Shown one piece after another: positions 23,582 through 28,311 of a stretch of DNA of 34,225 nt (positions within the stretch are counted from its first letter, which is position 1; each line of letters starts with the position of its first letter). The stretch covers positions 1 to 34,225 of the forward strand of contig JACSRF010000504.1 of the NCBI GenBank assembly GCA_014879875.1. The letters run 5' to 3'. A program made the position numbers and the translations under genes. The stretch is from Anaerolinea sp. (GTDB lineage Bacteria > Chloroflexota > Anaerolineae > Promineifilales > Promineifilaceae). Under the pieces are notes generated by a model. That model was not told where the DNA came from and made no database searches. It saw nothing but the letters and a program-made list of their open reading frames with translations.

Positions 23582-25084
23582 ATGGAAGGCATTGTTGCCA
23601 TTGTGATCCCAGTTATTATCTTCGTGAGCTTTGCCCTCGTATTTGTGTACGCCAGCCGCGTCAAGAAAGTTGGCCCGAACGAAGTGTTGGTCATCTCCGG
23701 GCGTGGCGAGGGGCACAAAGGGCGCGATTTTCAGGGCATCGAGAGTAAGTTTCGTATTGTCACCGGCGGCCGTTCCTTCATCTGGCCCATCTTGGAGCGT
23801 GTGGATGACCTGTCGCTGGAAATCATGACCATTGACATTACCACCCCCGACGTGCCCACCTTACAGGGTGTGCCCGTGACGGTGGAGGGGGTCGCGCAAA
23901 CAAAAATTGGCAGCGATCAAAATTCAATTCGCACGGCCGCCATCCAATTCCTTTCCAAAAGCAAGGATGAGATTAAATATGTGGCGCACGAAACGCTCGC
24001 CGGCCATTTACGCGCCATTCTGGGGACGCTGACGGTGGAGCAGTTGTACAAAGACCGTGAAGCGTTTGCGCAGAAAGTGCAAGAGGTGTCTGGCGAAGAC
24101 ATGGCGAGCATGGGTCTGGAGATCGTCTCCTTCGTCATCAAGGACATTAGCGACAGCGAAGGGTATCTGGAAGCGTTAGGACGGCCGCGTATTGCCCAGG
24201 TGAAGCGCGACGCCACCATCGGCGAGGCGGAGGCGGCGCGTGACGCGACCATCGAAAGCGCCCGCGCCCGCCAGCAAGGGGAATCGGCCAAATTCGACGC
24301 CGAAACGAAGATCGCCGAAAGCCGCAAGAGCTTTGAGGTGCAAAAGGCGGCCTACGAAGCGGAAACAAACCGCAAGAAAGCGGAAGCAGAACTGGCTTAC
24401 ACCTTGCAAATGAACATCACCAATCAGCAGGTGAAGGCGGAAGAGGTGGAGGTCGAGGTCGTCGCCAAGCGCAAATCTATTGAAGTGCAGGAGCAGGAAG
24501 TGTCGCGCCGCGAAAAGGAATTGGAAGCGATGGTGCGCAAACCGGCGGAAGCGGAACGCTTCAAGGTGCAAACGTTGGCCGAAGCGCGGCAGTTCCAACT
24601 GCAAACAGAAGCTTCCGGTGAAGCGGAAGCGATTCGGTACAAAGGGCAGGCGGAAGCGGACGCAACCAAGGCGCAAGGGTTGGCGGAGGCGGATGTGCTG
24701 CGGCAAAAGGGTTTGGCCGAGGCGGAAGTGATCCGGCAGCAAGGGTTGGCCGAAGCGGAAGCGACGCTGAAGAAGGCGGATGCGTGGAAGGAATATACGC
24801 AAGCGGCCGTTATCCAACAATTGCTGGACAGCCTGCCGGAAATCGCCGCCGCCATTGCCCAGCCCTTGTCGAAGACAGACCGCATCGTCATTGTCAGCAA
24901 TGGCGGCGATGCCAACTCCGGCGTCGGCGCATCCAAAATTACGCAAGACGTGACGAATATCATCGCCCAGGTTCCGGCGACCATTGAGGCGCTGACCGGC
25001 ATGGATTTGATGGGCGCTATTGGCAATTTGCCAGGCTTGAAGCAGACAAAAGCGGAGCAGGAAGCGGTAAGCCGTAAGCAGTAG
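23582..25084 (+). CDS. Flotillin-like SPFH domain protein
   Basis: A 500-residue flotillin of the YqiK/FloT type. An N-terminal hydrophobic anchor (residues 4-25) is followed by the SPFH/band-7 domain (about 30-210). Then comes a long Ala/Glu/Lys-rich coiled coil (about 210-410) and a hydrophobic C-terminal segment. Within the coiled coil near residues 360-395 the phrase G-L-A-E-A is repeated three times at about 12-residue spacing, the flotillin EA repeat. A strong AGGAGGAG precedes the ATG. It forms an operon with the NfeD-like gene and ends at a good terminator. Likely scaffolds ordered membrane domains; its cargo is unknown. Confidence 0.93.
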   Translation: MEGIVAIVIPVIIFVSFALVFVYASRVKKVGPNEVLVISGRGEGHKGRDFQGIESKFRIVTGGRSFIWPILERVDDLSLEIMTIDITTPDVPTLQGVPVTVEGVAQTKIGSDQNSIRTAAIQFLSKSKDEIKYVAHETLAGHLRAILGTLTVEQLYKDREAFAQKVQEVSGEDMASMGLEIVSFVIKDISDSEGYLEALGRPRIAQVKRDATIGEAEAARDATIESARARQQGESAKFDAETKIAESRKSFEVQKAAYEAETNRKKAEAELAYTLQMNITNQQVKAEEVEVEVVAKRKSIEVQEQEVSRREKELEAMVRKPAEAERFKVQTLAEARQFQLQTEASGEAEAIRYKGQAEADATKAQGLAEADVLRQKGLAEAEVIRQQGLAEAEATLKKADAWKEYTQAAVIQQLLDSLPEIAAAIAQPLSKTDRIVIVSNGGDANSGVGASKITQDVTNIIAQVPATIEALTGMDLMGAIGNLPGLKQTKAEQEAVSRKQ

Positions 25085-25158: not shown

Positions 25159-25186
25159 TTGACTTGGAAGCCATGCCCGTTATAAT
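25159..25186 (+). promoter_or_regulatory. Promoter of the riboswitch-controlled transporter operon
   Basis: TTGACT (25159-25164), a 16-base spacer and perfect TATAAT (25181-25186). This is the best sigma-70 match in the window. Initiation near 25193 would place the FMN aptamer about 25 bases into the transcript. Confidence 0.75.
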
Positions 25187-25217
25187 CATTGTTATATTTT
25201 GCACAAACTCATAATAA

Positions 25218-25413
25218 CCTTCGGGGCAGGGTGTAATTCCCGACCGGCGGTAAGGCGAACGCAAGCCAAGCCCGCGACCCGTTGGCGGTGAACGGTAAGC
25301 AGTGATCAGTAAACGGTAAGCAGTTTGTAGACCGATTACCGACTACCGATAACCGCCAACGGTGGATCTGGTGTGAATCCAGAGCCGACAGTGATAGTCT
25401 GGATGGGAGAAGG
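25218..25413 (+). promoter_or_regulatory. FMN riboswitch (RFN element)
   Basis: The conserved RFN segments are present in order: CTTCGGGGCAGGGTG, AATTCCCGACCGGCGGT, AGCCCGCGA, then GGATCTGGTG, AATCCAGAGCCGACAG and AGTCTGGATGGGAGAAGG. The closing stem P1 is CCTTC (25218-25222) with GAAGG (25409-25413). This RNA binds flavin mononucleotide and normally lowers expression when flavin is plentiful. It is about 196 bases long because one variable stem (CCGTTGGCGGT 25279-25289 / ACCGCCAACGG 25352-25362, 11 perfect pairs) carries a 62-base loop made of dispersed heptamer-type repeat. A terminator follows at 25438-25458, so control is probably by transcription attenuation. Confidence 0.95.
25290..25351 (+). 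repeat. Heptamer-type repeat inside the FMN riboswitch loop
   Basis: AACGGTAAGC units at the left and ACCGATTACCGACTACCG at the right resemble the intergenic heptamer arrays elsewhere in the window and can pair with one another, extending the variable stem. The core of the aptamer on either side is intact. Confidence 0.75.
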
Positions 25414-25437
25414 GAAACAGCGTGTTGTTTGCCATTG

Positions 25438-25458
25438 CCCCCTTTGTGGGGGTTTTTT
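25438..25458 (+). terminator. Riboswitch expression-platform terminator
   Basis: CCCCC (25438-25442) pairs with GGGGG (25448-25452), followed by six T residues. It lies 25 bases after the FMN aptamer and ahead of the transporter genes, the standard arrangement for FMN-induced termination. An antiterminator could form from the 3' part of the aptamer; I have not modelled it. Confidence 0.85.
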
Positions 25459-25523
25459 GTTAATGGCGTCGGTAGCTGAAATGGACTAAGGGTTCCATCG
25501 AAAACAACTTTGGACTTTTGTTC

Positions 25524-25567
25524 GTAGTAACTGCTTCAGCGGTCTGGACGGCTAAAGCCGTTACTAC
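25524..25567. repeat. MITE-like hairpin GTAGTAAC...GTTACTAC
   Basis: A 44-base element with perfect 8-base ends (25524-25531 and 25560-25567), containing ACGGCT/AGCCGT as inner stem. It is related to 67-114, where the inner stem is ACGACT/AGTCGT; the pair changes together, so base pairing is conserved. It lies in the transporter mRNA leader after the riboswitch terminator. Confidence 0.7.
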
Positions 25568-25594
25568 AAACTTGTTTACGCGCGAACCCTAAGC

Positions 25595-25632
25595 AGTTTT
25601 ACCGACCACCGATCACCGCTTACTGATTACCG
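25595..25632. repeat. Heptamer repeat in the leader of the flavin transporter
   Basis: TTACCGACCACCGATCACCGC followed by TTACTGATTACCG: the intergenic heptamer family again, just upstream of the permease start. The 585-base gap 25085-25669 is otherwise accounted for by terminator, promoter, riboswitch, second terminator and the GTAGTAAC hairpin. Confidence 0.6.
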
Positions 25633-25669
25633 TTCCCCCTCCCCCTGCCCTATAGCGACAAGTGAACCG

Positions 25670-26449
25670 ATGCGCTGGTTAAATGCACAACCGACCTGGT
25701 TGATGGTGTTTGTTTCCTTCCTGGCTTTGCTGCTAGGGTGGGAACTCCTGGTTATGTGGGGCGAGTATGACCGGTTTATTTTGCCCGGTCCCGGCGATGT
25801 GTGGCGGCAGTTGCAGATTGTGGTGGGCGACGGCCGTTTGCCCAAACACACCCTCATCACCCTCAGCGAAGTCATTCCGGGGCTGCTCATCGGCTGCATC
25901 ATCGCCCTGCCCCTGGGCTACCTGCTCGCCAAATCTCCCCTCGCTGCCCGTCTCATTTCCCCGTACCTGATTGCCTCGCAGGCCATTCCGGTGATCGCCA
26001 TCGCCCCTTTGCTCACCATTTGGGTGCGCTCCACCTATTGGGCGCGCGTCCTCGTCGCTGTGCTTGTGGTTTTTTTCCCCATCCTCATCAACATTATCGC
26101 CGGGCTGCGCTCCGTGCCGGCCGAACTGTATGATCTGATGACCTCCTTACAAGCCACACGCTGGCAGACGTTTCGTAAATTAGAAATCCCGGCGGCGCTG
26201 CCCGTCATCCTCGCCGGACTCAAGGTGGGGGCTACCTTGTCGGTGATTGGCGCATTGGTGGGCGAGTTTGTGCAGCCCAAAAGCGAGGGGCTTGGCTTTT
26301 TGCTGGTAACGGCGCGTTACCAATTCAAAACAGACCTGGTCTTTGTGGTGTTGTTGACGCTATCACTCATGGCCCTCAGTTTATATGGAGTGGTGGCTTT
26401 ATTGGAAAAACGGCTGCTGCGCTGGCAGCAAGCAGGCAGCCGACAATAG
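25670..26449 (+). CDS. ribX: ABC transporter permease, probable riboflavin/flavin-precursor uptake (RibX-like)
   Basis: A 259-residue permease of the SsuC/TauC/ThiX type with about six membrane helices. The cytoplasmic EAA-type loop is seen around residues 145-175 (L-R-S-V-P-A-E-L-Y-D-L-M, then W-Q-T-F-R-K-L-E-I-P-A-A-L-P). First gene after the FMN riboswitch, followed by a THI5-like lipoprotein and an ATPase. Family alone would allow thiamine precursor, taurine or nitrate transport. The FMN riboswitch makes riboflavin or a precursor the likely substrate, as proposed for RibXY of Chloroflexus. The ribosome site is weak. Gene name rests on context. Confidence 0.85.
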   Translation: MRWLNAQPTWLMVFVSFLALLLGWELLVMWGEYDRFILPGPGDVWRQLQIVVGDGRLPKHTLITLSEVIPGLLIGCIIALPLGYLLAKSPLAARLISPYLIASQAIPVIAIAPLLTIWVRSTYWARVLVAVLVVFFPILINIIAGLRSVPAELYDLMTSLQATRWQTFRKLEIPAALPVILAGLKVGATLSVIGALVGEFVQPKSEGLGFLLVTARYQFKTDLVFVVLLTLSLMALSLYGVVALLEKRLLRWQQAGSRQ

Positions 26450-26493
26450 TGCGATTGGCTAAAGGGTGTGTTTCATTAATTTGGAGGAAAACC

Positions 26494-27477
26494 ATGAAAC
26501 GATTATCAAGACTTCTATTCTTAATCGCCGTTGGGTTGCTTATGGCTTGCAGCAGTCAGAATGAGGTAACGGAAACGGCCGCTTTAACACGTATTCGCCT
26601 GCCGATGGGGTACATTCCAGACCCACAGTACGCCCCCATCTACGTGGCCGTAGACAAAGGGTATTATGCCGCCGAAGGACTGGAAATCGAATTCGACTAC
26701 AGCTTTGAAACTGACGGCATGGCGCTGGTCGGCGCGAACCAGGTCCCGCTGGCCATTGTCAGCGGCGAGCAGGTGGTCCTGGCGCGCGCGCAGAAATTGC
26801 CGGTGGTGTATGTGTTGGAATGGTTCCAGCGCTATCCGGTGGCGATTGTCAGCAAAGCGGATGCCGGTATCGTCAGTCCGGCCGATTTACGCGGCCGCAC
26901 CGTTGGCCTGCCCGGTTTCTTTGGCGCTTCTTACGTCGGTTATGTGGGGCTGCTCGCGGCCAATGGGTTGGCGCAAACAGACGTAAACGCCAACGACATT
27001 GGCTTTACGCAGATCGAATCCTTGTTAACCGGGCAGTCGGAAGCGGTGGTGGTGTATGTCAACAATGAGCCGGTGCAGTTGGCGGCGCGCGGCGAAGCGA
27101 TTAACGTCATGAACGTGGCCGATTACATTGACATGGTCGCCAACGGCATCATCACCAACGAAACAACCATTGCCAATAATCCGCAACTGGTGCAGGGGTT
27201 TGTGCGCGCCACGCTGCGCGGCCTGGCGGATACGCTGGCCGATCCGCAGGCGGCGTATACCATCTGTAAGAAGTTTGTTGAAGGGTTGGATGACAGCCGC
27301 ATGAATGTGCTGGAGGCGTCGTTGCTGCTCTGGCAGGCGGAGACATTGGGCGAAACAGACCCCGCTTCCTGGAAGCAAACGGAAGAGATTTTGTTGCAAA
27401 TGGGGCTGCTGGATGCGCCAGTCGCCAATCTGGACGCGGCGTATACCAATGAATTCATTTTGAACGCCCAGCCGTAA
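26494..27477 (+). CDS. ribY: ABC substrate-binding lipoprotein, NMT1/THI5-like (RibY-like)
   Basis: A 327-residue solute-binding lipoprotein. The signal peptide (M-K-R-L-S-R, then a hydrophobic stretch) ends in the lipobox L-M-A-C with Cys19 as the lipidated residue. The mature part has NMT1/THI5-type features: Y-I-P-D-P-Q-Y-A-P-I-Y-V-A, then K-G-Y-Y-A-A-E-G-L-E-I-E-F. The start at 26494 is fixed by GGAGG 7-8 bases upstream and by the signal peptide; the longer frame from 26449 is not needed. Its TAA stop lies in the first unit of a heptamer repeat. It presents the ligand, inferred to be a flavin, to the permease at the outer membrane face. Confidence 0.9.
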   Translation: MKRLSRLLFLIAVGLLMACSSQNEVTETAALTRIRLPMGYIPDPQYAPIYVAVDKGYYAAEGLEIEFDYSFETDGMALVGANQVPLAIVSGEQVVLARAQKLPVVYVLEWFQRYPVAIVSKADAGIVSPADLRGRTVGLPGFFGASYVGYVGLLAANGLAQTDVNANDIGFTQIESLLTGQSEAVVVYVNNEPVQLAARGEAINVMNVADYIDMVANGIITNETTIANNPQLVQGFVRATLRGLADTLADPQAAYTICKKFVEGLDDSRMNVLEASLLLWQAETLGETDPASWKQTEEILLQMGLLDAPVANLDAAYTNEFILNAQP

Positions 27478-27537
27478 ACCGTAATCCGTAACCGGTTTAC
27501 GGTTTACGGTTTACGGTTTACAGTTTACGGTTTACGC
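27475..27537. repeat. GGTTTAC heptamer array between lipoprotein and ATPase genes
   Basis: The entire 60-base spacer is repeat: CCGTAAACCGTAATCCGTAACC in one sense, then at least five GGTTTAC units in the other. The halves are complementary and should form a hairpin in the mRNA. The last unit runs to within one codon of the ATPase ATG, leaving no recognisable ribosome site. Confidence 0.85.
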
Positions 27538-28311
27538 ATGGTTACAGAACGGCCGTTTCTCATCACCCACGAACTTAGCTTCATCTTTGAAGGGCGGCTG
27601 CACGTCCTTGAGGATGTGTCGCTGACCATTGCCGCCGGGGCGTTTGTGGCCCTGGTTGGGCCATCCGGCGTGGGCAAGTCAACGCTGCTGCGTCTGCTGG
27701 GGGGGCTGCTGCCGGCTACCGGAGGCGAGGCGCTGCTGCAAGGTCAGCCGCCCCATTTGCATGGCTCTCCCATTGGCATTGTGTTCCAGCGAGATGGGCT
27801 GATGCCCTGGCGCACCGTTTGGGACAACGTGGCGCTGCCGTTGGAGCTGCAAGGGGTGCAGAAGGGGGAGGGGAACGGCCGTATTCAAGCGGTGTTAGAC
27901 CTGGTAGGCTTAAGCGACTTTATCCACAGCTATCCGGCGCAGCTTTCCGGTGGCATGGCGCAGCGCGTCTCCATTGCCCGCGCCCTGGTGCATGAGCCGG
28001 CGCTGCTGCTGCTGGATGAGCCGTTTGGCGCGCTGGACGCCCTGACCCGTGAACGGATGGGGCAAGAACTGCTGCGTATTTGGGAGGCCATGCCCGTCAC
28101 CGTCTTCATGGTGACGCACAGCATTATGGAGGCGGTGCTGCTGGCTGATGAAGTGATGGTGATGAATGGGGAGCCGGCCGCCGGCAAACCGGCCAGGATT
28201 ACGGCGCGCATTCCCATTAGTTTACCGCGCCCGCGCCACCTGCACATGCAAGCGACGGCCGACTTTCAACAACACGCTGCGGCCGTGCGCCAGGCCATTG
28301 CCGGCGTTTAG
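27538..28311 (+). CDS. ABC transporter ATPase of the flavin uptake operon
   Basis: A 257-residue nitrate/sulfonate/taurine-class ATPase. Walker A is G41-P-S-G-V-G-K-S-T49, Q-loop Q84, signature L-S-G-G-M-A-Q at 136-142, Walker B L-L-L-L-D160-E161, and the switch His194 (V-T-H-S). All catalytic motifs are intact. Third gene of the FMN-riboswitch operon and presumably the motor of the RibXY permease; such ATPases may also be shared with other importers. No ribosome site is seen because a heptamer repeat fills the upstream spacer. The next 0.75 kb downstream is non-conserved, AT-rich DNA. Confidence 0.92.
   Translation: MVTERPFLITHELSFIFEGRLHVLEDVSLTIAAGAFVALVGPSGVGKSTLLRLLGGLLPATGGEALLQGQPPHLHGSPIGIVFQRDGLMPWRTVWDNVALPLELQGVQKGEGNGRIQAVLDLVGLSDFIHSYPAQLSGGMAQRVSIARALVHEPALLLLDEPFGALDALTRERMGQELLRIWEAMPVTVFMVTHSIMEAVLLADEVMVMNGEPAAGKPARITARIPISLPRPRHLHMQATADFQQHAAAVRQAIAGV

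What the first reader, a model, noticed from the sequence alone, without database searches (positions are those of the whole stretch)
25279..25362. Dispersed repeat lodged in a variable stem of the FMN riboswitch
An 11-bp perfect stem of the aptamer carries a 62-base loop made of the heptamer family that otherwise lies between genes. All conserved RFN segments are intact. This looks like a mobile or expanding repeat tolerated inside a regulatory RNA, at exactly the one place where length variation is harmless, or possibly a repeat adopted as part of the fold.
Basis: partly seen in the sequence, partly recalled or inferred. Interest (0 to 1): 0.7.

Follow-up and report, generated by a model that had tools for sequence, protein, structure and literature searches.

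The report
Heptamer-repeat hairpin inside FMN riboswitch
A short repeat that is scattered between the genes of an uncultured Chloroflexota bacterium has also settled in an outer stem of a vitamin-B2 sensing RNA; relatives carry their own versions of such repeats in the same stem, and other structured RNAs (RNase P RNA, B12 riboswitch) carry them too, much as known cases in cyanobacteria, so it shows where conserved RNAs can absorb spreading DNA repeats.

Summary
Window 25213-25418 (+) is an FMN riboswitch (RF00050, 106.6 bits), upstream of a RibXY-like riboflavin ABC transporter. Its P4 stem-loop (25278-25364) carries the 11-bp stem plus 62 nt as described. The 62 nt are not an open loop: they are two opposed heptamer arrays that fold into a long hairpin continuing P4. 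BLAST finds about 40 related copies, mostly intergenic hairpins, in the same genome. I extracted P4 from 42 riboswitches of the same family. Eleven are heptad-periodic, using different heptamers (CGGTAAT, TGAACAA, CAATTGA, TTAATTG types). The rest of the aptamer has no such array. In one genus P4 differs by exactly 7 or 14 nt. The same kind of array also sits in the P3 loop of this organism's RNase P RNA, in P12 of a relative's RNase P RNA, and in two stems of relatives' cobalamin riboswitches. Best reading: a dispersed heptamer-hairpin repeat spreads and is retained where it merely lengthens a peripheral stem. Known precedents are cyanobacterial heptamers in RNase P RNA and the trnL intron P6b stem. 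This is a new variant of a known kind. How it moves, and any effect on FMN sensing, are untested.

The parts
25213..25418 (+). FMN riboswitch aptamer (RF00050), complete
   Evidence: cmscan 106.6 bits, gathering 66.2
25278..25364 (+). P4 stem-loop enlarged by the heptamer hairpin (87 nt; heptad-free members of the same family 13-55 nt, apart from two long non-heptad P4s of 89 and 93 nt)
   Evidence: RF00050 alignment; family P4 table
25279..25289 (+). 5' strand of the 11-bp P4 stem; CCGTT is shared with the congener G001, GGCGGT belongs to the repeat-like part
25287..25326 (+). left heptamer arm (C[GA]GTRAN)n of the repeat
   Evidence: direct repeats and inverted repeat I1; BLAST to dispersed copies
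25331..25358 (+). right heptamer arm (ACCGATT)n, complementary to the left arm
25352..25362 (+). 3' strand of the 11-bp P4 stem
25437..25459 (+). intrinsic terminator (GCCCCCTTTGTGGGGGTTTTTT), expression platform
25159..25186 (+). sigma-70-like promoter TTGACT-16-TATAAT upstream of the riboswitch (11 of 12 consensus bases)
   Evidence: consensus match only
25585..25640 (+). second, one-armed heptamer array between terminator and first gene; 31 nt of it are 77% complementary to the P4 left arm
   Evidence: inverted repeat I2; pattern matches
25670..26449 (+). ABC permease (BPD_transp_1), RibX-like
   Evidence: Pfam 4e-29
26449..27477 (+). NMT1/THI5-like substrate-binding protein, RibY-like
   Evidence: Pfam 2e-49
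27538..28311 (+). ABC ATPase of the same operon
   Evidence: Pfam ABC_tran 2e-32

Best explanation
A dispersed heptamer-hairpin repeat has come to sit in the tip of P4 of an otherwise ordinary, intact FMN riboswitch. The element consists of two opposed heptamer arrays and folds on itself, so it only prolongs P4 outward and leaves the FMN-binding junction alone. P4 of this riboswitch in this bacterial family is a recurrent landing or expansion site for whichever heptamer family is active in the genome. The arrays then gain and lose single heptamers. Shown: the insert, its membership of the dispersed family, its recurrence in P4 with different heptamers, its absence from the rest of the aptamer, and the same kind of array in peripheral stems of RNase P RNA and cobalamin riboswitches. 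Inferred: that it spread by copying (mechanism unknown) and that it is retained because it is nearly neutral for folding.
For: The own genome has about 40 dispersed copies, many matching both arms and the loop. 11 of 42 same-family P4s are heptad-periodic; 7 or its multiple 14 is the best lag in all 11. There are 0 arrays in 5,301 nt of the rest of the aptamers, against 11 in 25,017 nt of flank. The heptamer type in P4 tracks the genome: TGAACAA-type copies occur in only 4 of 52 genomes, and the three of those with an FMN riboswitch all carry that type in P4. P4 arrays occur in 11 of 19 repeat-rich and 0 of 22 repeat-poor genomes (Fisher 2e-5; counts; test). In genus g22, P4 is 42, 49, 56 and 56 nt, and the gaps are exactly 7 and 14 nt and lie only in P4. 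Predicted pairing of P1, P2, P3 and P5 is unchanged with or without the insert (P1 0.93 against 0.94). RNase P RNA of this same genome has a ~53-nt (CCGATTACGGATTA)n insert in the P3 loop. Other cases: RNase P P12 in G032 and cobalamin riboswitches in G005, G009, G025 and G030.
Against: No strain pair with and without the insert was available, so the insertion event is not seen directly. The congener G001 has a 55-nt P4 with a possible eroded relic (local match 16/21, shuffle p 0.002), which would make the insertion older. No mobilising enzyme was linked: of five Y1 transposase matches in the genome only one has a strong 7-nt array on its locus, of another sequence. The enrichment of repeat-rich genomes is partly circular, because the queries were P4 inserts. 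A published structure study gives P4/L4 a role in the apo state (PMC7573352), so neutrality is not guaranteed.
Confidence: 0.85

Rival explanations
1. The heptamer hairpin has been adopted: the longer P4 is selected because it tunes the riboswitch, for example by delaying completion of the aptamer during transcription or by stabilising P3/P4 stacking in the ligand-free state.
For: P4/L4 is proposed to stabilise the apo state, and FMN riboswitches are kinetically driven (PMC7573352). All 11 P4 arrays fold as hairpins with z <= -2, against 67% of dispersed arrays (Mann-Whitney p 0.055).
Against: The G000 insert is no more stable than ordinary dispersed copies (-40.4 against -22.9 to -56.5 kcal/mol). 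G-U pairs do not favour the transcribed strand (3 on either strand). Most relatives do without (31 of 42), and sequences are unrelated between lineages. The hairpin bias can simply be a filter against misfolding.
Confidence: 0.08
2. P4 heptads arise locally by slippage of P4's own sequence in each lineage and have nothing to do with the dispersed repeats.
For: Single-heptamer length differences in g22; variable stems in general grow by slippage.
Against: The whole G000 insert, both arms and loop, matches dispersed copies at up to 85% over 75 nt; the heptamer type matches the genome's own dispersed type.
Confidence: 0.05
3. Assembly artefact of a metagenome-assembled genome: repeats collapsed into the riboswitch.
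For: The genome is a fragmented assembly (680 contigs) and repeats are where assemblers err.
Against: Both halves of the aptamer, still mutually pairing, flank the insert in the right order with the usual riboflavin transporter behind it; independent assemblies of other species show the same phenomenon.
Confidence: 0.02

Closest known systems
STRR heptamers in RNase P RNA of heterocyst-forming cyanobacteria (Vioque 1997, Nucleic Acids Res 25:3471; seen here only as cited in PMC2858038 and PMC4046671)
   Same: Short tandemly repeated repeats lie within the gene of a conserved structured RNA. That they are dispersed heptamers is from my own knowledge. Here the same is found in RNase P RNA, in this organism's P3 loop and in a relative's P12.
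   Different: Other phylum (Chloroflexota), other heptamers, and a ligand-sensing riboswitch as host RNA.
Heptamer-built P6b stem-loop of the trnL(UAA) group I intron in Nostoc (PMC4476775)
   Same: A variable stem of a structured RNA is built from 7-nt repeats (TDNGATT or NNTGAGT), differs by 7- and 14-nt indels, and switches repeat class repeatedly.
   Different: A self-splicing intron, two repeat classes only; here a riboswitch, at least four heptamer types, and many species without any.
BOX repeat between two T-box riboswitches of the pneumococcal trp operon (PMC3049150)
   Same: A dispersed hairpin repeat is co-transcribed with riboswitches that apparently still work.
   Different: BOX lies between riboswitches, not inside an aptamer stem; BOX is not a heptamer array.
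FMN riboswitch / RFN element (RF00050) with variable P4
   Same: All core segments, terminator platform, RibXY-type operon (RibXY under FMN riboswitch in Chloroflexi: PMC4418817).
   Different: P4 is filled by a dispersed repeat instead of a short private hairpin.

Membership tests
FMN riboswitch (RF00050) | Full-length covariance-model match above gathering score | tested here: met
   106.6 bits against 66.2, model 1-138
FMN riboswitch (RF00050) | Controls riboflavin synthesis or transport genes, with an expression platform | tested here: met
   Terminator 25437-25459; ABC permease, THI5-like binding protein, ATPase downstream; RibXY known in Chloroflexi. Control itself is inferred from position.
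FMN riboswitch (RF00050) | Binds FMN | not testable with these tools
   needs in-line probing or a binding assay
Dispersed heptamer-hairpin repeat of this genome | Insert is homologous to copies elsewhere in the genome | tested here: met
   79 BLAST matches in about 40 places, best 85% over 75 nt
Dispersed heptamer-hairpin repeat of this genome | 7-nt periodicity | tested here: met
   lag-7 fraction 0.60 against 0.25, z 7.4
Cyanobacterial STRR | Same heptamer sequences in a cyanobacterial genome | tested here: not met
   relatives named are Chloroflexota/Anaerolineae; heptamers are CGGTAAT-type. Works like STRR, is not STRR.
MITE / REP element moved by a Y1 (RAYT) transposase | Fixed ends and an associated transposase | tested here: inconclusive
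   Copies vary in length and show no fixed ends by eye; five Y1_Tnp matches in the genome, none flanked by this heptamer type in the loci seen

The most novel reading that the evidence does not exclude
P4 of the FMN riboswitch works as a heptamer-number-tunable element: gain and loss of 7-nt units in a kinetically controlled aptamer shifts the FMN threshold, so that a spreading repeat supplies heritable, quickly reversible variation in riboflavin-uptake control.
Probability: 0.08. Interest if true: 0.8.

Novelty: new variant of a known kind. Interest (0 to 1): 0.5.

Why it matters
Comparative RNA work usually treats variable stems as private drift. Here one bacterial family shows them being filled repeatedly by the genome's current repeat family, in at least three RNA classes (FMN riboswitch, cobalamin riboswitch, RNase P RNA). 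That makes conserved RNAs a natural map of where insertions are tolerated. It extends the cyanobacterial precedent to riboswitches and to Chloroflexota, and offers matched RNAs with and without inserts for testing what P4 does.

Tried and rejected
Hairpin better than other copies, as adoption would predict: not so, ordinary stability. Strand-specific G-U pairing as a sign of RNA-level selection: equal on both strands for the P4 copy. Y1/RAYT transposase as mover: five matches, no link to this heptamer. TPP riboswitches: none of 30 has an internal array, although 8 of the 30 have arrays in their flanks. A first RNase P scan cut off the 5' part and missed the P3 insert of the window's own genome; and the alignment corrected it. 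L142 RNase P lag-7 signal (p 0.02) was dropped because the alignment shows no clear heptamers. G008 P4 (89 nt) is long but not 7-periodic (best lag 8), and G059 P4 (93 nt) is only weakly so (p 0.035); neither is counted. The first regex extractions failed or were incomplete and were replaced. The Vioque 1997 paper itself is not held. P6 pairing was looked at separately: two competing registers in either form, so it says nothing about the insert.

Full report
What is there. Window 25213-25418 (+) matches the FMN riboswitch model RF00050 over its full length with 106.6 bits. A sigma-70-like promoter lies upstream (25159-25186) and an intrinsic terminator follows at 25437-25459. The next genes are an ABC permease, a THI5-like binding protein and an ABC ATPase. 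This is the RibXY arrangement known under FMN riboswitches in Chloroflexi, with riboflavin transport shown for Chloroflexus aurantiacus RibXY (PMC4418817). Nearest named relatives of the binding protein are uncultured Chloroflexota, class Anaerolineae, one labelled Ardenticatenaceae.

The insert. The fourth aptamer helix, P4, spans 25278-25364. The 62 nt are not single-stranded in prediction: they are a left array (C[GA]GTRAN)n and a right array (ACCGATT)n that pair with each other, so the whole is one long hairpin (z -5.7, inverted arms of 32 nt). In the folded full aptamer P1, P2, P3 and P5 keep the same pairing probability with or without the insert.

It belongs to a dispersed family. The P4 sequence as query gives 79 BLAST matches in about 40 places in the own genome, the best at 85% over 75 nt. 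Many copies contain both arms and the loop, and several end just before a start codon. In the window itself a heptamer-pair pattern has 25 matches against 1.4 expected.

Relatives. RF00050 was found in 41 of 52 genomes of the same family, and 42 P4s were extracted. Eleven are heptad-periodic: G000 (g1), G005 and G025 (g5), G029 and G063 (g11), G014 (g14), and G022, G034, G060, G061 and G062 (g22). The heptamers differ: CGGTAAT-type in G000 and G005, a related but diverged type in G022, TGAACAA-type in G014, G029 and G063, CAATTGA-type in four g22 species, TTAATTG-type in G025. By type and genus I count about six separate acquisitions (inference, no tree was built). No array lies in the other 5,301 nt of these aptamers, while 11 lie in 25,017 nt of flank. 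In genus g22 the alignment gaps are exactly 7 and 14 nt and fall only in P4. TGAACAA-type repeats occur in only four genomes of the family, and the three of these that have an FMN riboswitch carry this type in P4 (P4 list). P4 arrays occur in 11 of 19 repeat-rich and 0 of 22 repeat-poor genomes (Fisher 2e-5; rich means at least 10 matches in one). This test is partly circular, since the queries were P4 inserts.

Other RNAs. The RNase P RNA of the window's own genome (G000:C464:617-1032, minus strand; L124) has a 53-nt stretch of (CCGATTACGGATTA)n in the loop of P3, in a 278-bit match. G032 has a heptad hairpin in P12. Cobalamin riboswitches carry arrays in G030, G005 and G025 in the variable stem on the 3' side of the conserved CCGCAACTGT segment, and in G009 in the L5 hairpin. 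TPP riboswitches, which are compact, have none inside in 30 loci, though 8 of the 30 have arrays in their flanks. So the phenomenon is general for length-tolerant peripheral stems, not special to this riboswitch.

Mechanism. I think the most likely course is that a self-complementary heptamer repeat spreads in the genome by an unknown route and is removed by selection wherever it breaks an RNA or a gene, so that within structured RNAs only copies prolonging an outer stem remain. All 11 P4 arrays fold as hairpins (z <= -2), against 67% of dispersed arrays (p 0.055), which fits such a filter. The G000 copy is neither more stable than other copies nor biased in G-U pairs, so I see no sign of adoption. 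The age of the G000 insertion is open: the congener G001 has a 55-nt P4 in which 16 of 21 nt match the left arm (shuffle p 0.002), possibly a relic, while its genome gives no match to the CGGTAAT-type insert at E <= 0.01. Whether P4 length is harmless is also open, because a crystal study assigns P4/L4 a part in the ligand-free state (PMC7573352).

Relation to what is known. Heptamer repeats inside structured RNAs are known from cyanobacteria: RNase P RNA (Vioque 1997, by citation only) and the trnL intron P6b stem (PMC4476775). A dispersed hairpin repeat between two T-box riboswitches is known in pneumococcus (PMC3049150). Tandem heptamers are also on record for another member of the phylum, Chloroflexus aurantiacus (PMC6749651), without a link to RNAs. 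My searches of the held papers found no report of such repeats inside a riboswitch aptamer; that library is incomplete. I therefore rate this a new variant of a known kind.

Noticed in passing
G000:C464:617-1032 (-), locus L124: RNase P RNA of the window's own genome carries a ~53-nt CCGATTACGGATTA array in the P3 loop, the same heptamer family as the riboswitch insert.
   Followed up: yes
L242, L249, L252, L253: Cobalamin riboswitches of four related genomes carry heptamer hairpins in two different peripheral stems.
   Followed up: partly
L119 1501-1909: RNase P RNA of relative G032 has a heptad-like hairpin insert in P12.
   Followed up: partly
25056-25084: A heptamer array (GCGGTAAGCCGTAAGCAGTAG) forms the last codons and stop of the flotillin-like gene 23582-25084.
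   Followed up: no
27472-27536: A long heptamer hairpin fills the gap between the RibY-like gene and the ATPase gene; its first heptamer supplies the RibY stop codon and it ends just before the next ATG.
   Followed up: no
25585-25640: A second, one-armed heptamer array follows the terminator and is 77% complementary over 31 nt to the P4 left arm, so read-through transcripts could pair it with P4.
   Followed up: no
1-152 and about 25525-25570: Another dispersed repeat, GTAGTAACNNCTTTAGNNGTC-like inverted pairs (TRF period 82 at the window start), apparently also intergenic.
   Followed up: no
L027 (G008) P4: An 89-nt P4 with best lag 8 instead of 7; possibly an octamer-based or eroded insert.
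   Followed up: no
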